Below, piece by piece: positions 10,917-58,432 of a stretch of 64,000 nt of DNA. The stretch is from Talpa occidentalis (Eukaryota > Chordata > Mammalia > Eulipotyphla > Talpidae): contig NW_023601543.1 of NCBI RefSeq assembly GCF_014898055.3, forward strand, positions 14,097,314 through 14,161,313. Reading direction: 5' to 3'. The notes beneath the pieces are model-generated. The model saw only the letters and a list, made by a program, of their open reading frames with translations. It had not been told where the DNA came from and made no database searches. Every line of letters starts with the position of its first letter. The first letter of the stretch is position 1. The position numbers and the translations under genes are program-made.

Positions 10917-13900
10917 CTGTGTAAAGAAAAAGACATAGCTAAGGGCAGGTGCAGAACCGTGAACCTGAAAACAGGTTGCACTGAATGTTCAGGATGCTAG
11001 AGGAACATCTAGAGGATGGATTTTCCAGCAACCCTGGGCTCACAGAGAGAGGGTGACATGAAACACTTTACCTGGTGCGCAGGCGGGGCCACTTCTTCCA
11101 CTCTATGGCCAGCACCACACCCAAGGCTACGACAACTACCACGATCAGGCTACTTCGGACAATGTTACCCACAGTGCACTCCTGAGCAGCAGGTCCTGTG
11201 GTGAAAAAGAGCCGCTGACAGTGCCTCCAAGGTGGGCACATAGACATTCCCCTCAGCCTCCTGTTGCCCCCTCATCTGGCCTCCTCCAGGGTTCACTTGG
11301 GGATCATGTCTTGAGGCCATAGAGAGGGTGCTCTGTGGCAGTGCTTAGGCTGAGGCAGAAGCAGCCTTCCCTTTTGCGAGGTGGGAGACTTTGACAGCAT
11401 CCTATTGGCTATCTCTGAGTGAGTCTGAGGCCCCTCCCACCCCCATCGTTAGGAGAAAGATGACCAAACTTGCGGTCTCACTCCAAGGGGTTCCCCCCTC
11501 CATATCTGGGCTGTCCCCGTGGGGACTGTCCCTGGGATCCCAAGTGAGTCATTCCAGGACCATAGAGGGATTGTCCTCTCACCTGCTGCCCCCACCAACT
11601 CCAGAGGCTCACTGGGCTCCGACCAGATATCAGGGTAGGCCTGCAGGCGGTAGCTGCAGCTGTAGTTTCCAATGCCCTTTCCCTCTACGTTGTTGATGAC
11701 AAAATCTCCGTCCTCTGAGAACTGCTGAGGTGCTGCTTCTCCTTCATGCTCCAGGACAAACTCAACTCCCGGCAGGGGTCCTCGGCACTGCAGGGTGATG
11801 TCCTTCCCCAGTTTGAACACGGTGTTGGGCCAGGCCGACAGGGAGGGTTTAGGGGGCTTATCTGGAACCAACCAGGAGGTAGAGTTAGAAGTGACCCTGA
11901 ACACCACTTTTTCTCCCATTGATGACTAGAGACTGAAAAAGTATAAAATGTAGACTCTGAGTCCTCCGGGGCCTTACCAGTCACCCAGATCTCCAGGGAG
12001 TCACTGTGATTGGAAGCTGCAAAGGGAGCAGAATCCAAGTAGTAAACACAGCTATAGATGCCAGAGTCTTCGCCTCTCAGCGCGGGCATCCAGAAGTCAG
12101 CCCTGTACCCTCCTGGCCGCTGTTGCTCTAAGGGTTCCTGAGTACCCTCCTTCAACAGGACAAATGTTGAGTCTGGCAGTTCCCCTTGACACTGAAGAGT
12201 CATGTTTTCTCCAGGGGCCACCATGGGACCAGGCTGGGCTAATAGGCTGGGTTTGGGGAGCAAACCTGAAAGAAATTAACTCCTAGTCAGAGAGAGGGGA
12301 CCGCTTTCCAGTGTATTACCCGGAGTCTCTGTTCAGCGAAGGAGAAAGACCGCTGCTTGCCTTTACTGGAGCTCTTCGGAAACCGGCTCCCATGCACCAG
12401 TCTAGTCCCTCCTTTCTGCACTGCCACGCCCACCAGAGCACCTTCCCCTCACCTGTGACTATGAGTTCCAGAGTGTTGCTACGCTGTATCTTGATAGGGC
12501 TGGTCCAGTCAGGGTGGTAGCAACAGCTGTAACGCCCGATGCTAGCACCAGATATATTGGTGATGGAGAAGGAGCCGTCATTACTAGTGGATCCCCAGAG
12601 CTGCAGTGAAGTGGCTTCTTTTTCCTTGTGCAGAATGTACCCTACTCCGTGGACTGGCCCTTGGCACCACAGAGTAACATTCTGCCCCATTGGGACCACG
12701 GAACTGGGTTCAGCAAACAACCACGGCTTGGGGAATGTGTCTAGGAAGAGACCACAGATGTAAAGTGCAAGTAGGGAGACATCACTCACCGAGCGAGGCC
12801 TTTGTCTTTCTTTGTGTCCAGTCGTTCCTGAGAGGGAATCTCCGCCCAAACCCCTACTCCAGGACAGTCTACCCCACTCCTCTGTCTTGTCTGTCCTCAC
12901 CTGTCACCCAGATCATAATGGGCATGCTCAGATGTGATCCCCGATTTGACATGGTTGTCTCATAGTAGACACAGCTGTAGTTCCCAGAATCCTCTACTCC
13001 AGCAGCGTGCAGCAGGAAGTCAGCTGAGCTTCCCGGGGCGCTCTGGAACTGTAAGGGAACCTTGATTCCCTCCTGCAAGAGGGCGAACCTCATGCCCTGG
13101 AAAGGCCCTTGACAGCGCAGGGTCACGTTCTTCCCAGGAAGCACCACAGGACCGGGCTGTGCCAGGAGAGTGGGTTTGGGGTAGAATTCTGAAATTGAAG
13201 AGACCACAACATGAAAGAAGCCTGTCCCCCACGCCCTGTACTTTGCTTTTTTAAATGTTATTGTCAGAAACATACATGTTTATGTCGACAAATTTTAAAT
13301 GCAGAATAAACCCAATGAAGAAATTACAATTTTGCCATTCAAAAATAATCACGTTTTTGTATCTCTTTCCCAATTGTTATTTGTATACATACTCATGACC
13401 TTACAGCTGTAACTAGTTACATAATTGGACTCCTGCCACATGCACAATTGTGCGTATTTTTCACTTAACTTTATTTGTGAACGTTTTCCGGTGATATTAA
13501 GCAGCCTTTGGAAACTATCATTTGTAATGGCTACACAGTCTATAGCTGCCCTTTCCAGGTCTTGTCTCTGAGGGCCATCCAACCCACCAATCTCTGCCAG
13601 CTGAGCTAAAGAAAAAGTGGACACTGAACCTAAAACTCAAGGCCAAGCCACAAAAGGATTTCAGAAACAGGCGAGGTGAGCATGGCTGTGGGGATCGGAC
13701 ACCCCATCACCCTCACTTTTCTTCCCAGAAATGAATTCCCTGCCCGCGCCCTGCCCTTTGTCTCTGCTCCATGTAATAATGATAATATCAGCAGCTGCCT
13801 CCCGGGGCCTGTTGCCGACGTGCCTGCTGGGCACTAGCCTAAGCACATTCCCCTCGTTGCTTAGAAAGGAACACTTCTTCCCTCCAGCTGACACCCCTCC

Positions 13901-16900
13901 GCCCTCTGTCCCGGGGTCTGTAACCTCTACCTGGCTTCTCCCCCTCCTGACCTGTGACCACGAGCTCCACAGGGTCGCTGGGCTCGGACCAGATGGCAAA
14001 ATCGTAGTAGCGACAGCTGTAATTCCCTCCATCTCCAATGCCAGCCGAAATGATCAGAAAGTGGGCCGCGCTGGCGCCGGGGCTTGCCCAGGACCTGTCA
14101 CTGGACGCGACTTCGCTTCCATCCTTGTAAAGAATAAAGCTCATGTGCTGGTGGGGAGTGGAGCAATTGAAAGTCACTCGAGCGCCAGGAGTGACCACAG
14201 GGCTGGCCCATGTCTTGAAGAAGGGCTTGGGGTACATTTCTAAGAGGCAGAAAACCAAGCACAAGACAAATCCAAACTAAGAGGGGGAAAAAAGCAGAGG
14301 CGAGAGCCAACTTTGGTTCTAGGAGCTACTTTGCTTTCCATACGATTTCATTCAGAAGCAGGCGAATTTAGAAACTCAAAGGCGAATCTTTAAATCCACT
14401 TAACAGGTGAACTTTTCACACAGGGACCCCCGCCCCCACCCCTCACCTCCTCCAGGGAACCCTCAGGGTGGCCAGGTTGGCAGCGGAGGCTGGCTAAAGA
14501 GCACTGTGGCCCGTTTGGACTGGAAGGGGAAAAGGTACCTGTTCCGCCTCCCTCGAGTATTTGTTCTATAACTAAATGAGATAATTGATATGAAAATAAT
14601 TAGAAAAATTAAATCACCCTCCACAAAGCCCAGCTATTAATAACGATTATGGCTATTAATATCGTGCAGCCAGAGGCCCTGGCACTCCCAGTGCCACGCC
14701 TGCCTGGCTCTAAGATTGGACACAAGCTCCTAGGACCAGCAGCAAAGTTTGCTGAGAGGAGAGGAGTGTCTGACCCCGAGTGCTGCCTGCCAGGCCTCCC
14801 TCTCACATGCTTTTCAGCTCTACCTTTTATGAGCAGCTGCAGGGGCTCGCTGGGCGCAGACCACTGGAAGGGGCTCGTTTCCGTGTGAGTGCGGCAGCTG
14901 TAATTGCCTTCGTCTTTATCCTCCATTCTTTGGATCGTAAAGAAGGCTTCTCTCCCGACAGCACCAAGTTGCTGGACGGGTTCCCGCACCCCCTCCTTAT
15001 ACAGAGCAAACCCCAAGCCTGCCAGCCATCCTTTGCACCGGATCTGCAGCTCCCGACCCCGAATTGGGGGAGAAGCAGAAATGACAGGTTTGGGGAGGAT
15101 GTCTGGAAAACACGATAGGGTGGAAAAGGAGTGTGAAGTTTGGAGGTGCCCAGATGGGTCCCTTGCAGTAGCTTTGTCAGCAAAAAAAAAAAAAACAACT
15201 CCATTCTGGACTGGCCTTTGGCTTTCCTCGCCAGTATCCTCTCGCTCGCTCCCCTCCCCTCCCCCACCCGCACCCCCTCTCTCCCACAGGCAGTAGGAAC
15301 CCCGGGGGCTCCAGGCCTTTGTGCATTCTCGCAAGCCCAGGAAGAGTGGCGGAGTCCCAGGGGGCCCCGGAGATCACTCCTCCGGGAGGACCCTCTGCCT
15401 TTTCTTACCTGTCCCCACCAGTTCAAGTGCCTCGCTGGGTTCCGACACAGCCATCTCCTCCCATGAATGGCAGTGGTAACTCCCGGTGTGGCTCTGGGTC
15501 AGGGCGCCAAGCGGGAAGGCAGCCCGAACCTGCTCTGAGGCCGGCCGAGTGGCGATCCACCCCGTCCCGTCCTTCAGTAACACAAACTCCTTAGTTGAGC
15601 CAGACGGGCTTCTGCACCAGAGGGTTAAGTTCTTCCACGGGGCCAGAGGGAAGTTGGTCTCTGCCCACAGCTCAGGCTTAGGGGTTGGCATGATTATTTC
15701 TAGAAACAGCAGAGTTAATGAAACCATCCTTCTTCCTCCTTCCCCCTCCCCCTTCCCTTGTCCTTGAACCCCCTACCCAGAGCGCATGGCCCACCTCCCC
15801 TTTCAACTCAAATCCAAACTATTTCTTTTCTTCCGCAGGTGCTGGGGAGAGAGGAAGCGGGTGTCTCAGCTAAGCTTCAGAAAAGTGCAAAAGCTGGGGT
15901 TGGGGGGGGCGGTTGGATTTTACAGCCAGAAAAGCAGAGTTGGAGGCTGAATTTTGCTAGCAGTTCCAGCAAGTGCCCCTTCCTGGCTGTCCTTCCCTCC
16001 CAACCAGTCACTCCCTGGCCACTGACACTGACACTCTGTAGTTATTTCGGATCTCCAGGGAGGAATGTCCCAGTCTGGAGCAGGAAAAACTCACCAGTCT
16101 CTTCTGTCAATACCCCACTGCACAGTCCTGCAAAAGAAATTGCTGCCAGGGCTGTGTCTCCTCTCCCCGGGCTCCTGCCCAGGCCCCTTCCCCACCCCCT
16201 TGCACTCACCACAGCAGAGCAGGGCTGTGACTATGAAGAGCATGGTGACCCCTTGAGCTGTGCCCAGCAACCAGGCTTCTCTAGCGAGACCAGAAAAGAG
16301 AAGAGAGGAGTTGCTGGGATTAGGGGGAGGGCGGAGAGAAGGGGGCGGCAATTTATGTCATTGGCTTACTCACCACCCAATGGGGACTGGATATGGCCAG
16401 GATAATGGGATATAATCTTTTCTGACATCGATGACTTTTCTTTTTGAGGGCCTCACCACCTACAGACCTCTTGCTCTCTCATGACCTGCGTGCCCTGCCC
16501 CTCCCCTCCCCAGTCTATATCATATGTCAGCTCCCCATGGCCCCTGATTAGGCTGTTGCTGGAATTGAGACGTCAGATACGAAAATGCTTTTGTACCTCC
16601 AGCTCTCAGAACCCCTGGAGTTCAGTGTGATCGGCAGCTCTGGGTGGTAGATGTGGGGGTGGAGGGAGAAATCTTGACTGTTTCTCTGTCATCAAGTTTA
16701 AGTTTGGAAGCAGTTTTTATTATGGCAGTATTGGTCCTCAGACCTACCCGCCTCACCTGCCTTTGTTATGGGAGGGTTGCCTTGGCAGCAGAGGTGCATT
16801 ACCAGAGGGTTGTCAGTGCTGAGCTGCGCTTGTCAGAGAGTGGGCTCTCCCTATTGCCACCCAGATTATTACTACAAATGTGCAGCAGCTTTGGATTTTG

Positions 16901-17309: not shown

Positions 17310-20300
17310 ATCATAGTCCTCGTCCATTGTGTATTGAATATGCCCACACACACAAAGGCTTATGATCACAGTGGGGGTGGGTACAGCCAGGAACAGAGGG
17401 CAGGAGAAGCAAACAAGGTATTCAGACCCTAAGGCCCCCACCAGGGCAGAAGCTGCCATTTTCTCCCTCATTTTCAAATAGAATCACCTGAGCATGGCCA
17501 TGGAGGGAAAGGGAAAATGGGCCAGTGGCTAGAAAAAGATGGAAGGAAATGGTGGGAGGCCCTGTTAGGCTTGCCACTGCATTTTGTGAGTCAGAAGAAG
17601 GAGTCTGCTTCCCTGGTCCCATCCATGGCTTCATCACATGCCCATCCAGGTCAAGAGTATATCCTCAGACTGCTGTGCGCAGGCGCTTGGAAGCCAAAGT
17701 GGCAGAGAAACTGGCTCTTTGGCAATGAGGATAGACCATGGGGCTCCCTAGTCTCTGAGAGTTGGGGTACAGGGTGAAAAACTGGGATGGGAGTTGGATA
17801 ATAACCCAGAAGACAGGGTAGCGTGTCTTCGTACAAGAAGAAACATTCAGACCAAATTCATGTGGGTGATATCAATCATCTCTGAGGGGCAGCGTGATTT
17901 GTGGGGCGATTTAGCCACCTTCCTGGGGGTATCAGTGAATGAAGTTCTGACTATTTCTTCACCCTCAGAGAATAGAGTTTCTCCAGCTTGGGTGCTGATC
18001 TCTCTGTGTGGTGAAAAAGAAATGGGTGGGATGAGAAGTCTTGTCTGCTAAGCCCGGAGGGTGGGGGATGCAAAGGGTGTGTCCCTGTGACTTGTCTCAA
18101 ATGGAGTATTACCCACCCCTGAATTTCTGGACAGCCCCAACTCAGCTAGATTGAGGAACAGAAAAGTTACCTGATTCTGAGTCTCCGACACTTCCACCTT
18201 ATCCACAATACCACCGAGAGCAGGGCAACAAGCTGGATGATTAAGGACAACCTGATGGCTTCATTCAGAACGTAATTCCAGGTGAGCAACCCTGTGGCCA
18301 GAGAAGACCAGAAGAAGCAGGGGCAAAGGAACACATTCATGGGGGTTGGGGTGGGGAGGGAGTGGCTGGTTACTAAGAGTGAAGGAAGATGAGGCAGAAG
18401 CAGCCTTTTCCACAGAGAATGAGCGTCTTGGAAGTATGCTGCTCACTGCCTTTCAGTGAGTGTGAGGCGCCTATACCTGAAGGGTCCCCAAGCCCAAGGG
18501 GCCTGGCTTTTAAGCCCTGACTCCCCACTCCATATCTTTCTGGCCACTGCTTAGGAATCCCAGGGACATCGAAGCTAAAGCCATGCAGGAGTGTCCTTAA
18601 GAAGAGTTTTCCTCTCACCTGCTGGTCGCAACAGCTTCAGAGGCTCACAGTGGTGTGACCAGATGTCAGGGTGTGACTGTACGCGACAGCTGCAGCTGTA
18701 GGTCCCTGTGCTTTTCCCTTCAACTTTACTGATGACGAAGTCTCCTTTCACTGAGAACTTCTGGAATGTTGTTCTTTCTCCCCATTGCAGAGGAAATTCA
18801 AGTATTGGAAGAGGCACTCGGCACGGAAGCAGGATGGCCTTTCCTAGCTTGAACATTTTGCTAGGCCAGGTACATCTAGAGGGCTTGGGGGGCTTATCTA
18901 CAACTAATGCAGAGAGCAGAGTTAGTAGTGACCTTGAACTGAGTACCTCTTTTCCCCCCCACAAATGTTTCTCAGCTCCTTATTTGGGCTTCTCTCCCTT
19001 TCCAGTTCACTATAGCAGTGGCTTCAGAATTGACTGCATTAGAACCCCTTGTCACATTCTTTGGTGCCCTAACAGCCTTCAATCTGGAAGACCTCATACT
19101 TCTAAGTTTCCCCTGATCTTAAGGAAAATAAATTTTCAGGAGTCACAATAGGTCTGAGCCATGCTGGGCAGCAAAGCTTTAGTAATAATCCTGGGAGAGA
19201 AGGTACCTAATGTCTTTCTAGAAAATTCTCCACTGCTCTCCTAGCATGGACTTTCCTTGACTCATTACTTCAAGAGGGAACAGGACCACTAGCTCCTTCT
19301 TAGAACACTGTAATAATAAAAACAGACAACTACAGTTGTTAGCACTTGCCTAAAACCACAAACTCCACAGTCTTGTGTGATGTCATCCTGATGGAGGTCT
19401 TCCAGGAGAGGAGACAGCGGCAACTACAGATACCAGCATCCCTGCAGGTCACATTGCTGAAGAAGAATGACTCCTTATCATCGATGTCTTCTTTTTTATG
19501 GAGTGCAGTTCCCACATCATCCATTGGCCCTCCACACCACACGCTCATGTTCTGACCCATTTGGACCACAGGACTGGGCTGAGCAAGTAGCCAGGTCTCC
19601 TGGAAAGTGTCTAGGACAAGACCCAAAATACAAAGAGCTAGTAGTCTGACTTCCCCCTCCCACTCCTTAGCATTTGTTCCTCCTCTTCTTCCAGGCGACC
19701 CTTGGGAAACACCATCTTAAACCCAGCGGTACAAATTCTGTTCCCTTCCCCACTTGCAATATTAGATTGTCCAGGGGACCCAGAGCGAGTTGTATATCCT
19801 TATTCCCTAATATGCACCCCATGGCATCCCCCTCTCTTACCAGTTACCCAAATTTTCAGGATATCACTAAGCAGTGAAGCCCCGTATGACCCATCACAGT
19901 AAAAACAGGGGTAATGTCCAGCATTGTGGAATTTCAAAACCCAGAAGAAGAAATATACTTCATTTTTTATTGGCCTCTTGAGGTAAAGGGACTTCTCCAG
20001 GTCTTCAAATCTTATTAAAATAAAGTTCATTCCATAGATTGGCCCTTGGCACCTGAGATTCAGGCTTTCTCCGGGTGCCATGATGGGCCCAGGGTAAACT
20101 GTTAGAGTTGGTTTAGGATAGAGTCCTAAAAAGGGAAGAGATCTCAAATTAGAGGTAGGATGATTCTTCCCTATTATCTTCTGGTTTTATTTTCCTGTTT
20201 TCTTTCCACAGGAAGTGGTTGCTGAAGTTTATCCTCTGTTCCCTCTCCCTTCTTGAATCTCTGCTGCCTAGAGAAGGGAGCCAAGGGTAAGTTCTTATGT

Positions 20301-23300
20301 CCCTGCCCTCTTACTAGACTCTCTCAGCTTCACTGAGCTCTAACGGTGTGTATGGGTATGTATCAGTGAAATAGCTGTCTGTAATTCCTCAAAATGCCAA
20401 ATATAGTTCTTCCAACCACCCAAGAAACCAAACTTCTGAAAATAACTCTGATTCCATCCTTGTACAACATGTATTTCTGCAGCATTAAGGAGGGCTTTTG
20501 AACATATCAGCCTACATAAGAACTTACTTCCCTCAATAGATTGGAAAAAGTCAATAAGGAGGGTTTGGGCAGTAAGCCTGCACCCCGGGGAAATCTCTGA
20601 TAATGGGGCCACACGCTCGTTTCCATGTGTTGTTCCCCCAAGGAGACCGTACCACAAAGTAAATGTTGTTTCCCCCAAGGAGATTGTACCACAGAGTAAA
20701 GGGCAAACCTCACTCCCATATCACTCCTTTCTGTCTACCCCAAACCCAGATAGACCCAACTATTCATTATCAGAAGTACTAGCTCCATCATATGCTCACT
20801 GAGCATATAGGATGTCTGGGAAATCATTTAAATATGGAGATATACAAGTAAAAACATGGTTCCTCTTGATCAAAAGTTCATGGTCCAGTGGCAGATACCA
20901 GTGAAAGTGTGGAAGCATGTTTGTGCGTGTGTATGCTGGAAGGACATTCGTACAACAAACATCCATACACACAGTTCAACAGACAGTCCTTTGTTCTTTG
21001 ATTCTCAATAAAAAGCTATACTAATAAAATTAATATCTACCATTTATTGAGAACGTATATGCCAGGCACTGTACATATATTTTAGCAAATCCTCACAACA
21101 ACCCTGTGAGGTAGGCATTATCATTATATCAATTTTGCAAATCAGAAAACTGAGGCACAGAAAGGCATCATACAGTAGGTTGGATAGATAGAGTTATCCC
21201 ATGTTAGACTGGGGGAAACCAAGCACAGAGAGGTGAAGTGACTTGCTCAAGATCACACAGGAAGGCAGTGTCAGAGGGGGAAGTGGAAACCAGGATTACT
21301 GCTTCTAAGACCAGAGTATTTTGTGTAGCACCACAGCTTTCCCAAGCCTATTTAGCTTGATGTAGGAACTAAAGCATATGTTGCCAAATGTATCTAGAAG
21401 CATCCAGACCATGGGGTGAGGGAGCTGGGGCAGAGGTGTGTGTCTGGCACATGGACGTTTTAGAGAGCCTTCTGATGTGTCTAAAGCTTGGTGCTGCCTT
21501 ACCGGATCTATAGATGCAGAACTAAAAATAATATAGAAAGACATTTCTAAAATATGAACTCTTGCTTTCTTTGTCATTTGTTTTATCACCACCACTAACA
21601 ATTTGTTCTATCTTCCACACTTAAAATAATAATCACCGAAAGAATAAAATACACGTAAAAATTTTAAAACCAGTGTTAAGAGCAGTGGCAGTGCCTGGCA
21701 CATATGAGGTGCTCAATAAATATAGGCTGAGTGAATTGAACGCATGCATGATATTCAACAAGTAGAGAACAACAAAAGTGATGAACTGAAGCTGCTGGAC
21801 ATCGGGCAGGGCTCACTCACTACGTGATGGGCTCCCACACATCTGCCATAAGCATCGAGATGCTAATTTGCATCTCAGTGAAATGTCAAATGACTGGAAC
21901 TCATGGGTCATGCAGGGCCTAGGAAATGGCTGGCGGAAGTAAAGCCAGAAACCCTGGCTCATCCCACCATGATCCCGGGGACTGTGATCATCAGGCCCCA
22001 GCAGCCATAGCCACACCCACCCGCCACAATCAGCTTCAGGGGGTTGCTAGGCTCTGACCACAGGGTAGGGAGCATCTGGATATGAGTGCGGCACATGTAA
22101 ACTCCCTCGCTCTCAGGTGTCATGTTGGCAATGGAGAATATGGCCACTGTCCCGGTTGGTACTTGGTAATCCACGGGCTCTGCATATCCCTCTTTGAACA
22201 GCATGAATACCAAATCCTGCAGCCAACCATGGCAGAGGATATTAACATTACACCCAGGAAGAGGGGAGCTCTCATCCTGGATCCAGAAGATGGGCTTGGG
22301 CAGCTGGCCTGGAAGGAGATAATGAATTGGGATTCAGGTACAGCAAGGATAACGTTGCTCGGGAAGCAGCAGTGGAGAGCTGCGTCATCCTTATTTGCCA
22401 CCTTTCACACCCCATCTCTGGTGTGAAAGCCCCTGTGTTGCCCTCTTGATCTCTCCTAGAGCCTGTGTCCTCACTGCACATTGCCCATAGAAAGTAAGCT
22501 CTCTTAGTTGCAAATGCTGGGTGCTCCCATGTATTCATGCATGCATTTGAGGTAAACAAATGGCTGCTCTTGGAAGGCAAGTTTTAACCCTAAGAAGCTA
22601 AAGCTTATTCTTGAATAGCTACCTCTGTCTTCTTACCTGGTGCCTCCAACTCTAGAACTTTACTGGCCTCTGACCAGCCCGTCTCCCTCCAGTAGCGGCA
22701 TCTGTAGAGACCGGCATTGGACTTAGTCAGGGCACCTATGGGGAACGAAACTTGGAAGGTCTTGTAGGAAGGACGGATCCAGGTCATCTGTGTCTTATCC
22801 TTCAGCAGCAGGAACTTGCTTGACATCCCAGAGGGACTTTTGCACCAAAGCGTGATGTTCTGCCAAGGGGCCTGGGGGAAGTTGCTTTCTATCCACAGCT
22901 CCGGCTGAGCCTGCATTCCTGTCGTGGCCCAAAATCACAAAGATGTGAGCCGTCCACCCCCCTCCTTCCCATCTTGTGCCCCCACTCCTGTCCCTTAAAA
23001 TTCAACTGGATTCACCCTTTTTGTCTTCCTTTGGGAACAGGAGATTCTGCGTGTGGTGTGGGGGGGGGGGCGTGCACGCGGAGGGGAGGGGAGAGCCCCA
23101 GGATATCTGTTCAAGTCATCCCCGTGCTTTGGGGTATAATGTGCAAATATGGTTTCCTTTCCATCTGAGAAAAAGCTCTTTACTATTCTGTGGGAAACCA
23201 CATCATGAAGTGAGGGGTCTGATCCCAGGGAAAGATCTTTGGAGTGTCAGTGCCCTGCCTCCAGGGCCATGGGGACAGACCAATATCGCGGAGCCCTTAG

Positions 23301-31616: not shown

Positions 31617-33135
31617 TTTTTTATTTTATTGGTCATAGTCTAGTGTCTCCCTAGCCCACACATCCTTAATTTTTATCTTCTACATTCACATCCTCCCTCC
31701 CAGGTACCCCTCCCTCTTTCCTTCCCATTTTTTTTTTCTTTTCTTCCTTTACCACGCAGTAGGTATACAGGCATACATACACACTTAATAGCAACTCACC
31801 AACATTACATGTTCCATCAATTTTCACTAGTCACCCTGGCAAAAATACAAATAATCACAAAACTAAGATCTACATTCTATTAAGAAACTGGACTTTGTAA
31901 GTCAATGTAGTCACTTATCTCCAGAAGCACCCTCTCCCTGGGCTGCAGCTGCCTGCAGGAAAGCCTGGAGTTTTGGAGTTTTGCTGACAAATGCCTTGAA
32001 GTCATCTTGATTGTCAAAGATTCTTCTCTCATCTTCAAATAGGAAAGACAGCCTGCCTGGATGGCTCACTCGGGGCTTCAGACCCAGGAACTTCAGCTGG
32101 TAGTAGATCTTGCTCCAACTTGGTCTCTCTTCCACTGGAAATAAGGCATAGTCTGGTGTCAGCCCTATTTTAACCTTGTTAAAAATCAGTTCTCCTTTTT
32201 TTTCAGCAGCTTGCAGAATGCTTTCTTTCTCTTTCAAGTTTAAGAACTGTATAATTATGTGCCTTGGACTTTTAGTTTGAGAGGTATGTTTAAATGGGGA
32301 CCTGTAAATTCTCTCTGTGTGTAAGTTGAGATCTATGTTTAGCTCTGGAAAATTTTTTTCAATAATTTCCTTAATAATGGTTTGGAGGTTACTCTCATTT
32401 TCTGCACCCTCAGGGATGCCAGATACACGAACATTGTACTTCCTTGAAGCATTTTCAAGATCCAGCACTTTTTCTTGAACTGTGAAGATCTGCTGCCTTA
32501 AAATTTTTATCTTTTGAGATTGAAGTTCAACTTGGTCCTCATTTGTACTAATTCTCTCTTCCATGATATTTATTCGGTAATTTTCTTCTCTCAAGATTTC
32601 TTTCAATCCTGCGACCTCACTTGCCAGTGCCCCATAATCTTTGATGAGCTTTTCCTGTGTGCTTTTTAAAATGTCCACATGGTCCCGTATCACTTGCAGG
32701 GTGGAAAACATCAGCTCCCTCACACTGCTCCTTTCTCGGGGCTCTTCCTGCTGACCGGCCAGGCCCCCTGCATCTCTGGAGCACCCTGAGGTCCCGGGAT
32801 CCTCCTCGCTGTCACAGGACTTCTTGCCTGTGCCCAAGCTTGTTTTCATCATTTTTCTCATTCTCTCTGAAGCTTAGGTGGCTTTTGTTTTCTTTTTCTG
32901 CTCTCGTAGCTGAGGCTTCTGTGAGCTTTGAGGTGTTTCCTAAGCTCAGCAGTTTGGTTCTGCACAAAGCTGCTTTCTCTGTGCTCTCCCCCAGATGCTG
33001 AAGAACTGGGGTCTTTTCAACGACATTCAAGCTGAAATCCTCAGAAACACTATAGGAAATGAAGGTATAATTAACTGATGTGCTCTGCTCTAATAGCATG
33101 GGGAGTAAGAGCTTCATAGCCCTACAGGTAAGATA
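31617..33135 (-). mobile_element. HAL1-like (half-L1) retrotransposon: ORF1 only, no ORF2
   Basis: Reading the minus strand, a leader of about 270 nt (down from 33135) is followed by an intact L1-type ORF1. Then comes about 290 nt of 3' UTR with a purine-rich G tract (about 31675-31745) and an A-rich end AATAAAATAAAAAAAA near 31617-31635. No reverse transcriptase ORF follows. HAL1 elements are known mammalian L1 derivatives with this layout. The 5' limit is uncertain and I did not find TSDs. Confidence 0.65.
31911..32861 (-). CDS. L1/HAL1 ORF1 protein, intact
   Basis: The frame encodes 316 residues with no interruption. Residues about 1-45 are charged and low-complexity. Residues about 50-135 form heptad-rich coiled coil (LKSTQEKLIKDYG, LKEILREENYRI, ILRQQIFTVQEKV). 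There follows the RRM start (NVRVSGIPEGAE) and the C-terminal domain (FLNLKEKESILQAAEKKGEL; SHPGRLSFLFEDERRIF). ORF1p is the RNA-binding trimeric chaperone of L1 ribonucleoprotein. An open frame of this length suggests a fairly young insertion. It is a repeat protein, not a host gene. Confidence 0.85.
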   Translation of the reverse strand: MRKMMKTSLGTGKKSCDSEEDPGTSGCSRDAGGLAGQQEEPRERSSVRELMFSTLQVIRDHVDILKSTQEKLIKDYGALASEVAGLKEILREENYRINIMEERISTNEDQVELQSQKIKILRQQIFTVQEKVLDLENASRKYNVRVSGIPEGAENESNLQTIIKEIIEKNFPELNIDLNLHTERIYRSPFKHTSQTKSPRHIIIQFLNLKEKESILQAAEKKGELIFNKVKIGLTPDYALFPVEERPSWSKIYYQLKFLGLKPRVSHPGRLSFLFEDERRIFDNQDDFKAFVSKTPKLQAFLQAAAAQGEGASGDK

Positions 33136-57493: not shown

Positions 57494-58423
57494 TCATTGC
57501 ATCAATTTTCTTAGAGCTACTTTTACATCCTTGTTCCTTAATGTGTAAATAACAGGGTTGAGAGCAGGGGTGAGTACTGTATACAGAAGGGAAAGCAACT
57601 TCAGTAAGTGTTCATGCTGAGGGCCTGATGGGAAGCCGTAGACAATGCCCAGTGTCCCATAATACAGACTGACCACTGTCAGGTGGGAAGAACAGGTGGA
57701 GAAGGCTCGCTGCTTCCCTGTGTTGGAAGGAATCCTCAGAATGGTGGAGATGATATGAGTATAAGAAGCCAGGGTCAGCAGGAATGGGCCAAGGGCAAAT
57801 AAGGAGGTGCATATAAAAGAGGTCATCTCAGCTACTTGAGTATCAGTACAGGCCAGCTTCATGATGGGCTTCAAATCACAGAAGAAGTGATCGATCTCAT
57901 TGGCGGTACAGAATGTTAACTGAAAGATGAGGACCATAAGAAGGATGGGTGCTAGAAATCCAGCCACCCAAGAGGCACCAGCTAACTGTAAGCAACCCCA
58001 GTGGTCCATGATGCTGGAGTAGTGCAATGGGTTGCAGATGGCTATGTAGCGATCGTAAGACATAACAGCCAGGAAGAAGCATTCAGTAGCCACCAGCGCA
58101 GCAAAAAAATAAAACTGGCAAGCACAGCCTGGGAAAGAAATAGGCACATGAGTTGACAGAAATGTTCTCAGCATCACGGGCTCAATGGTAGTCGTGTAAC
58201 CAATCTCGAGAAAGGAAAAGTGAGCAAGAAAGAAATACATGGGCGTGTGAAGAGAGCGATCAGCTGACACCACAGTTAGGATCACAATGTTGCCCATGAC
58301 AGTCACCACATAGATGGCCAGAAATATCCCAAAAAGAAGAAACTGAAAGCCATGGAGATCCCCAAAACCCAAAAGGATAACTTCTGAAATTTGAGTCATA
58401 TTTTCTTCCTCTGTGCTAGTCAT
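57494..58423 (-). CDS. Olfactory receptor, single-exon, intact (family 11/6-like)
   Basis: The frame encodes 309 residues, normal for a mammalian class II olfactory receptor, a G-protein-coupled odorant receptor of olfactory neuron cilia. Visible family marks are an N-terminal NMT glycosylation site, LLGFGDLHGFQ, GNIVIL (TM1), LHTPMYFFLAHFSFLE (TM2), MSYDRYIAICNPLHY (end of TM3), the extracellular loop cysteines, RAFSTCSSHLTVVSLYYG (TM6) and PALNPVIYTLRNKDVK (TM7). No stop or frame shift is present. An inner Met at residue 9 (MTQISEVILLGF) is an alternative start. Small OR clusters lie near IGSF1 on the mammalian X. The sequence resembles OR11 members, so it may be the OR11N1/OR11Q1 counterpart, but I cannot fix the orthologue. 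Confidence 0.93.
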   Translation of the reverse strand: MTSTEEENMTQISEVILLGFGDLHGFQFLLFGIFLAIYVVTVMGNIVILTVVSADRSLHTPMYFFLAHFSFLEIGYTTTIEPVMLRTFLSTHVPISFPGCACQFYFFAALVATECFFLAVMSYDRYIAICNPLHYSSIMDHWGCLQLAGASWVAGFLAPILLMVLIFQLTFCTANEIDHFFCDLKPIMKLACTDTQVAEMTSFICTSLFALGPFLLTLASYTHIISTILRIPSNTGKQRAFSTCSSHLTVVSLYYGTLGIVYGFPSGPQHEHLLKLLSLLYTVLTPALNPVIYTLRNKDVKVALRKLMQ

Positions 58424-58432
58424 GGCTTGGAT
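58424..58432 (-). promoter_or_regulatory. Splice acceptor and 9-nt leader before the olfactory receptor ATG
   Basis: On the minus strand a run of nine T residues ends in AG (58433-58434), then ATCCAAGCC precedes the ATG. This fits the usual OR gene layout, with noncoding upstream exons spliced close to an intronless coding exon. The upstream exon was not located. Confidence 0.55.

What the first reader, a model, noticed from the sequence alone, without database searches (positions are those of the whole stretch)
20315..20577. A fossil Ig exon sits between IGSF1 domains 2 and 3
An acceptor AG, a phase-1 GLLPKPSLL opening, an LYKDG strand and a GTAAGAG donor occur in the right order and at nearly the right spacing (263 nt against 279-291 nt for live exons). 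At least one in-frame TGA (20507-20509) and a frame shift disable it. It implies that an ancestral IGSF1 had one more N-terminal Ig domain. Similarity is mixed: the opening is most like domain 11, the LYKDG strand like domain 8.
Basis: partly seen in the sequence, partly recalled or inferred. Interest (0 to 1): 0.75.

Follow-up and report, generated by a model that had tools for sequence, protein, structure and literature searches.

The report
Dead Ig exon inside IGSF1 intron
A mammal's IGSF1 gene, probably a mole's, carries in the intron between its second and third immunoglobulin exons the decayed remains of one more such exon, which fits a published idea that this half of the gene once had more domains.

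Summary
The fossil exon is real. IGSF1 lies on the minus strand. A DNA profile of its 12 live Ig exons finds, in 64 kb on both strands, those 12 and then 20577-20326: 14.1 bits, E 4.4e-4, model positions 2-270 of 288. No shuffled control reaches it. Signal remains when either the PKP opening or LYKDG is masked. The exon is dead: four in-frame stops, 263 nt where all 12 live exons are multiples of 3, a weak acceptor. One copy was found in the 2.08-Gb genome. In 102 of 120 listed mammalian proteins Ig2 joins Ig3 directly; no live extra loop was seen at the six other junctions I read; 12 were not read.

Smith et al. 2022 proposed that the N-terminal half is a copy of the seven-loop C-terminal half that lost the loop-8 partner and perhaps the loop-11 partner. 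The fossil sits in the loop-8 slot. Its sequence does not settle that identity: some tests favour Ig8 or a deep branch, others Ig2 or Ig7. A fainter relic in the Ig4-Ig5 intron, the loop-11 slot, resembles Ig11 in most tests but not all.

The orthologous intron of other mammals could not be examined.

The parts
20315..20577 (-). F: decayed IGSF1-type Ig exon (263 nt) in the intron between the Ig2 and Ig3 exons; stops in frame, including TGA 20507-20509
   Evidence: nhmmer 14.1 bits E 4.4e-4; shuffles; translation with four stops
20578..20579 (-). AG of the former acceptor; weak, 2.5 bits against 4.1-12.9 for the 12 live acceptors, rank 29 of 124 AGs in the intron
20313..20314 (-). GT of the former donor (TA|GTAAGAG); second best of 104 GTs in the intron, but 6.8 bits against 5.3-12.2 for the 12 live donors
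22021..22308 (-). live exon of Ig domain 2 (upstream neighbour)
19841..20125 (-). live exon of Ig domain 3 (downstream neighbour)
13952..14239 (-). live exon of Ig domain 8, the C-terminal-half loop without a partner in the N-terminal half
   Evidence: PMC9162367
19104..19207 (-). second, fainter relic in the Ig4-Ig5 intron (limits approximate): resembles the acceptor and first 88 nt of the Ig11 exon

Best explanation
F is a dead IGSF1-type Ig exon. Shown here: similarity to the live exons along nearly its whole length, exon-like boundaries, several disabling lesions, one copy found, position between Ig2 and Ig3. Inferred: when the seven-loop gene was copied upstream of itself, the N-terminal half carried one more exon between loops 2 and 3, which was later skipped. 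Because every live Ig exon here is a multiple of 3 with phase-1 ends, a weakened acceptor lets splicing skip one exon and keep the reading frame, after which the exon decays freely. It has no function now; if it were ever spliced in, the stops would truncate the protein. Most likely it is the lost partner of loop 8 (about 0.5 on its own); the sequence alone does not prove which loop it was. The confidence given is for the dead-exon reading.
For: Profile hit over positions 2-270 of 288; null tests. A separate frameshift-tolerant test against 12 mammalian loop profiles scores F above the shuffle mean for all 12, with 0 of 400 shuffles reaching it for Ig1, 6, 7, 8 and 11. A profile of the seven C-terminal exons alone gives 13.2 bits. 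All 12 live exons are multiples of 3 (coordinates). Copied introns: those beside Ig1/6, Ig4/10 and Ig5/12 are still alike. For loop 8: published prediction of the loss; Ig8 has the highest identity to F under both alignments, 47.8% and 44.0%; Ig8 is the only terminal branch within 1 lnL of the best placement, in both alignments; F is sister to Ig8 in one of two trees, support 64/71; leaving Ig8 out cuts the hit from 14.1 to 8.2 bits.
Against: The profile hit carries a 7.3-bit bias value, and a profile of the five N-terminal exons alone scores only 3.0 bits. Against 400 other stretches of this window the codon-profile scores are reached by 0 only for Ig7; for the other 11 loops by 2-20. For the loop-8 identity: pairwise DNA ranks Ig2 first, and Ig12 and Ig11 also precede Ig8; codon profiles rank Ig7 first under four settings; leaving out Ig7 hurts as much as leaving out Ig8, and an Ig2+Ig7 profile gives 3.5 bits where Ig8 alone gives 0.3; simulated sisters of Ig8 gave the observed Ig2-over-Ig8 margin in 0 of 240 runs; F's flanks do not resemble Ig8's, and in the slot test Ig8 ranks 8 of 12, or 11 of 12 over the whole slot.
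Confidence: 0.85

Rival explanations
1. F is a dead exon of the Ig2/Ig7 type: a local tandem copy of the Ig2 exon (or of its ancestor), not the loop-8 partner.
For: Pairwise DNA: Ig2 best (z 5.3; 5.6-6.9; log-odds 10.6 against 6.4 for Ig8). Codon profile: Ig7 best, z 4.7-6.3. Stem of Ig2+Ig7 only 0.4 and 1.9 lnL below the best placement. Ig2+Ig7 profile 3.5 bits, best of the six loop groups. Simulated Ig2 copies reach the Ig2-over-Ig8 margin in 0.77 and 0.29 of runs.
Against: Terminal branches Ig2 and Ig7 are 6.5-7.0 lnL below the best in both alignments, AU p 0.056-0.15, so disfavoured but not rejected. Codon profiles give Ig2 itself low ranks (z 1.4-2.7). Flanks of F do not resemble flanks of Ig2 (z 0.2 and 0.3). 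It needs an extra duplication and a separate, traceless loss of the loop-8 partner.
Confidence: 0.33
2. Chance resemblance of an ordinary intron stretch.
For: Score is modest (14.1 bits, bias 7.3); single-exon searches give at best 0.2 bits (Ig8); local alignments with most single exons are unremarkable.
Against: E 4.4e-4 for the whole window, 0 of 2000, 0 of 5000 and 0 of 100 shuffles; the match starts at the exon start and ends 11 nt before the donor, on the right strand and in the right slot.
Confidence: 0.05
3. F is still used: an unproductive (poison) exon, or part of the 3' end of the short isoform IGSF1-2, which retains part of this intron.
For: Second-best GT of 104 in the intron; IGSF1-2 is a known, abundant transcript (PMC5501590, passages and introduction read).
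Against: Acceptor weaker than all 12 live ones. The read-through stop is near 21960 and an AATAAA lies at 21048, both upstream of F; where the transcript ends in this species is not known. None of the junctions that I read includes F.
Confidence: 0.05
4. F is a partner of the Ig3/9/11 group, for example an Ig11-type exon.
For: Opening GLLPKPSLL identical to Ig11; upstream flank resembles that of Ig11 (z 4.4; 2.4-2.7); downstream flank resembles that of Ig3 (z 4.3-4.6; 2.3).
Against: Terminal Ig11, Ig9 and Ig3 are 5.9-15.7 lnL below the best placement. Flank z values near 4 also occur for pairs with no expected kinship (Ig1/Ig4 upstream 5.0, Ig2/Ig5 downstream 4.0). The colinear order leaves no place for it.
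Confidence: 0.06

Closest known systems
Loop 8 and loop 11 losses in the IGSF1 N-terminal half (Smith, Harrison and Bernard 2022, PMC9162367)
   Same: That paper infers from domain trees that the N-terminal half lost the partner of loop 8, and in one of two scenarios also that of loop 11; the slots are those where relics are found here.
   Different: The parts I read (parts 1-3 of 4, and a term search) describe no remnant in an intron; 'remnant' and 'pseudo' do not occur in the main text.
KIR pseudoexon 3 (D0 Ig domain) in the leukocyte receptor complex
   Same: An Ig-domain exon kept in the DNA of an LRC-family receptor gene but left out of the protein. Seen only as a figure-legend phrase, 'D0 domain (or pseudoexon 3)', in one passage of PMC2973822; the rest is recalled.
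   Different: KIR pseudoexon 3 is little decayed (recalled); F has four stops, indels and under 50% identity to every live exon.
IGSF1-2 short isoform (PMC5501590; passages and introduction read)
   Same: Uses the same intron: retains its 5' part and stops there.
   Different: The coding tail is at the other end of the intron, about 1.4 kb from F, and is conserved in other mammals.

Membership tests
IGSF1-type (LRC) Ig exon, decayed | significant sequence similarity to live Ig exons along its length | tested here: met
   14.1 bits, E 4.4e-4, model 2-270 of 288; shuffles
IGSF1-type (LRC) Ig exon, decayed | phase-1 start after AG and a GT donor at the expected place | tested here: met
   acceptor weak, donor middling against live ones
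IGSF1-type (LRC) Ig exon, decayed | length a multiple of 3, open frame and the two core cysteines (needed for a live exon) | tested here: not met
   263 nt, no C in the phase-1 translation, four stops: expected of a dead copy, so it is not a live member
IGSF1-type (LRC) Ig exon, decayed | not a repeat element | tested here: met
   one match in the 2.08-Gb genome, with the tool's caveat that very common words are skipped; no repeat library was available
Ancient fossil shared by placental mammals | matching sequence with shared lesions in the same intron of other orders | not testable with these tools
   no other mammalian DNA reachable; genome contigs and viral-contig scans with Ig8 gave no relative
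Lost partner of IGSF1 loop 8 | lies between loops 2 and 3 | tested here: met
Lost partner of IGSF1 loop 8 | closest to Ig8 among the live exons | tested here: inconclusive
   Ig8 or a deep branch by tree; Ig2 by pairwise DNA; Ig7 by codon profile
Lost partner of IGSF1 loop 8 | flanking introns resemble those of Ig8 | tested here: not met
   flank z -0.9 to 0.2; slot test Ig8 8th and 11th of 12; only the whole downstream introns show a hint, z 2.5, 1 of 200. Flanks of the accepted pair 2/7 also fail this test (z 0.1 and 1.5)

The most novel reading that the evidence does not exclude
Both domains that the N-terminal half of IGSF1 is thought to have lost are still traceable as fossils in their colinear slots: the loop-8 partner as F and the loop-11 partner as the relic near 19104-19207. 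The N-terminal half was therefore born as a complete seven-loop copy, which decides between the two scenarios left open in 2022.
Probability: 0.35. Interest if true: 0.6.

Novelty: new member of a known kind. Interest (0 to 1): 0.42.

Why it matters
A published tree-based inference about how a human disease gene was built can be checked directly in intron DNA. If F and the Ig11-like relic hold up across placentals, they date the losses, show that the duplication copied all seven loops, and suggest that the N-terminal half, which has no known function, has been shedding domains since it arose. The 12-loop layout would then be a reduced form.

Tried and rejected
Pfam on the phase-1 translation of F, X at stops: no family, while Ig8 and Ig2 match Ig_2. 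Scans of genome contigs and viral contigs for mammalian contaminants with Ig8: no relative. Flank and slot tests of F against Ig8: no support. Single-exon nhmmer: too weak. Positive control for pairwise ranking: five live exons decayed at random by 35-45% substitution plus indels rank their source first in 598 of 600 runs, with mean z 9.3-17.8, whereas F's best z in that call is 5.9; so F is more decayed than these, or its true sister is not a live exon. The simulation uses a simple model without conserved codon positions and gives lower log-odds for Ig12 and Ig11 than observed, so its verdict against Ig8 is a caution and not a proof.

The Ig11-like relic. For: slot test Ig11 107.0, Ig3 100.9, Ig9 91.0, Ig8 89.9, with 0 of 200 shuffled Ig11 exons at three trims (shuffled mean 80.7 at the first); whole-intron alignment z 3.9, 0 of 300; a local comparison on a stretch chosen after the fact, Ig11 z 5.7, Ig9 2.7, Ig8 2.4. 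Against: plain local alignment to the Ig11 exon is reached by 66 of 500 shuffles; in the per-exon local test on that intron Ig8 (z 4.1), Ig5 (2.9) and Ig9 (2.3) come before Ig11 (1.5); nhmmer gives 0.9 bits, E 4.9, with model positions 67-132 that do not fit an exon start, and nothing when given that intron alone.

Guselnikov and Taranin 2019 on IGSF1 and A1BG, cited in PMC9162367, is not held and may discuss these exons. I do not claim that the fossil is unpublished; searches of the held library (listings only apart from the papers named) showed no report of it.

Full report
Setting. The window carries IGSF1 on the minus strand: Ig1 exon from 22918 down to the end of Ig12 at 11583. The species is probably a mole (Talpidae): over the seven C-terminal loops the closest of 120 listed proteins (171 hits) are Condylura (96%) and Galemys (95%); the family name is from memory. 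The own genome has 2.08 Gb in 2034 contigs.

Observation. The phase-1 translation of F has four stops, no cysteine, and keeps GLLPKPSLL, LYKDG and NY in one frame. The 263-nt length would shift the frame, whereas all 12 live exons are multiples of 3 (coordinates).

More than chance. A DNA profile of the 12 exons was run over the window on both strands. The 12 exons come first (122-184 bits), then F with 14.1 bits, E 4.4e-4, over model positions 2-270 of 288; the next non-exon hit has 7.3 bits over 37 nt, E 0.055. No shuffle of the intron (0 of 2000) or of F (0 of 5000) reaches it; 100 shuffles of the 60,341-nt non-exonic window give at most 8.2 bits. Masking the opening or LYKDG leaves 9.1 and 9.3 bits in the last third; masking the last third leaves 8.9 bits over the first half; 0 of 2000 shuffles each. 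So at least two separate stretches carry signal. A second test aligned F, frameshifts allowed, to profiles of each loop built from 90-120 mammalian sequences: F beat the shuffle mean for all 12 loops, z 1.9-5.9, and no shuffle of 400 reached it for five of them; against 400 other stretches of the window the result is weaker (0 for Ig7, 2-20 for the rest). Also on the weak side: the profile hit has a 7.3-bit bias value, and a profile of the five N-terminal exons alone finds only the 3' part with 3.0 bits, while the seven C-terminal exons alone give 13.2 bits.

Published frame. Smith, Harrison and Bernard 2022 (PMC9162367; parts 1-3 of 4 read) pair the loops 1-6, 2-7, 3-9/11, 4-10, 5-12 and propose that the C-terminal half was copied upstream of itself early in eutherian evolution, losing the partner of loop 8 and, in one of two scenarios, of loop 11. 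In the colinear order F lies in the loop-8 slot. In this genome the copying is visible beyond the exons: introns beside Ig1/Ig6, Ig4/Ig10 and Ig5/Ig12 are still alike (z 3.4 to 8.3; upstream of Ig4/10 11.9 and of Ig5/12 9.3-11.3). Flanks of 2/7 and 3/9 are not (z 0.1-1.5), so the lack of flank similarity between F and Ig8 is not decisive. The flank test is noisy: Ig1/Ig4 upstream (5.0) and Ig2/Ig5 downstream (4.0) also score.

Which loop was it. The tests disagree. For Ig8: highest identity under two alignments (47.8% of 232, 44.0% of 252); best or near-best placement (0.84 lnL below the best in one alignment, best in the other, while every other terminal branch is 5.9 to 16 lnL below); one of two trees makes F its sister, support 64/71; leave-one-out drop to 8.2 bits. 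Several deep internal branches do as well as Ig8. For Ig2/Ig7: pairwise DNA scores, codon profiles (Ig7), an equal leave-one-out drop for Ig7 and the best small-group profile (3.5 bits against 0.3 for Ig8 alone), the Ig2+Ig7 stem within 0.4-1.9 lnL, and simulations in which an Ig8 sister shows the observed Ig2 advantage in 0 of 240 runs. For Ig11 or Ig3: the opening and flanks. Slot tests put Ig8 8th and 11th of 12. Position and parsimony tip me to the loop-8 partner at about 0.5, an Ig2/7-type copy at about 0.33.

A second relic. The Ig4-Ig5 intron is the loop-11 slot. Aligned to the Ig10-Ig12 region without the 45 nt next to Ig5/Ig12, it scores z 3.9, 0 of 300 shuffles and 0 of 300 other genomic segments. 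With the real introns kept and each of 12 exons put in the slot, Ig11 fits best (107.0), then its two tree neighbours Ig3 (100.9) and Ig9 (91.0), then Ig8 (89.9); shuffled Ig11 exons average 80.7 and 0 of 200 reach 107.0. The matching stretch, about 19104-19207, aligns with the Ig11 acceptor and first 88 nt. This is weaker than F: the profile search gives 0.9 bits there with model positions that do not fit an exon start, plain local alignment to Ig11 is not significant (66 of 500), and in a per-exon local test Ig8, Ig5 and Ig9 come before Ig11.

Dead, and for how long. In 102 of 120 listed proteins Ig2 runs straight into Ig3; Echinops has 1 extra residue, Galemys 25 residues that mostly read the intron's start, four are C-terminal-half proteins where the probes matched loops 7 and 9, and in the other 12 the best Ig3 match is not adjacent and I did not read the junction. 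No live extra loop was seen. The joined ones include primates, rodents and elephant, and tenrec has the 1-residue case. This suggests that the loss precedes the placental radiation (inference), but only intron DNA from other orders would show that the fossil itself is shared.

How it came about (inferred). Symmetric phase-1 exons can be skipped without breaking the frame. F keeps a usable donor (second of 104 in the intron, 6.8 bits against 5.3-12.2 for live ones) but its acceptor is worse than all 12 live ones, which fits loss by acceptor decay followed by neutral drift. Nothing found here supports a present function.

Noticed in passing
window 19104-19207 (-): Ig11-like relic in the Ig4-Ig5 intron, in the slot expected for the lost loop-11 partner; tests for and against.
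   Followed up: partly
window 21959-22021 (-): Read-through of the Ig2 donor encodes GGCGYGCWGLMITVPGIMVG and a stop: the tail of short isoform IGSF1-2. Nearly the same tail ends five of the 12 proteins found (cow, camel, horseshoe bat, rabbit, vole), so the intron's start is conserved coding sequence.
   Followed up: partly
window 19350-19610 (-): Ig4 exon in this species lacks the PKP motif (DTFQETW), is 261 nt where most others are 279-291, and apparently uses a GC donor (GCAAGT).
   Followed up: no
window 20630-20702: Imperfect tandem duplication of about 36 nt just upstream of the fossil exon, seen by eye.
   Followed up: no
window 21040-21310: MIR-like SINE remnants between Ig2 and the fossil exon (recognised from memory, not searched).
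   Followed up: no
window 57497-58432 (-): 312-residue open stretch of an olfactory receptor, probably OR13H1-like (recalled neighbour of IGSF1).
   Followed up: no
window 31914-32873 (-): 320-residue open stretch resembling LINE-1 ORF1 (recognised from memory).
   Followed up: no
protein P0129: An IGSF1 Ig1 fragment recorded in 119 contigs, with metagenome collections among its sources; presumably mammalian DNA in metagenome assemblies.
   Followed up: no
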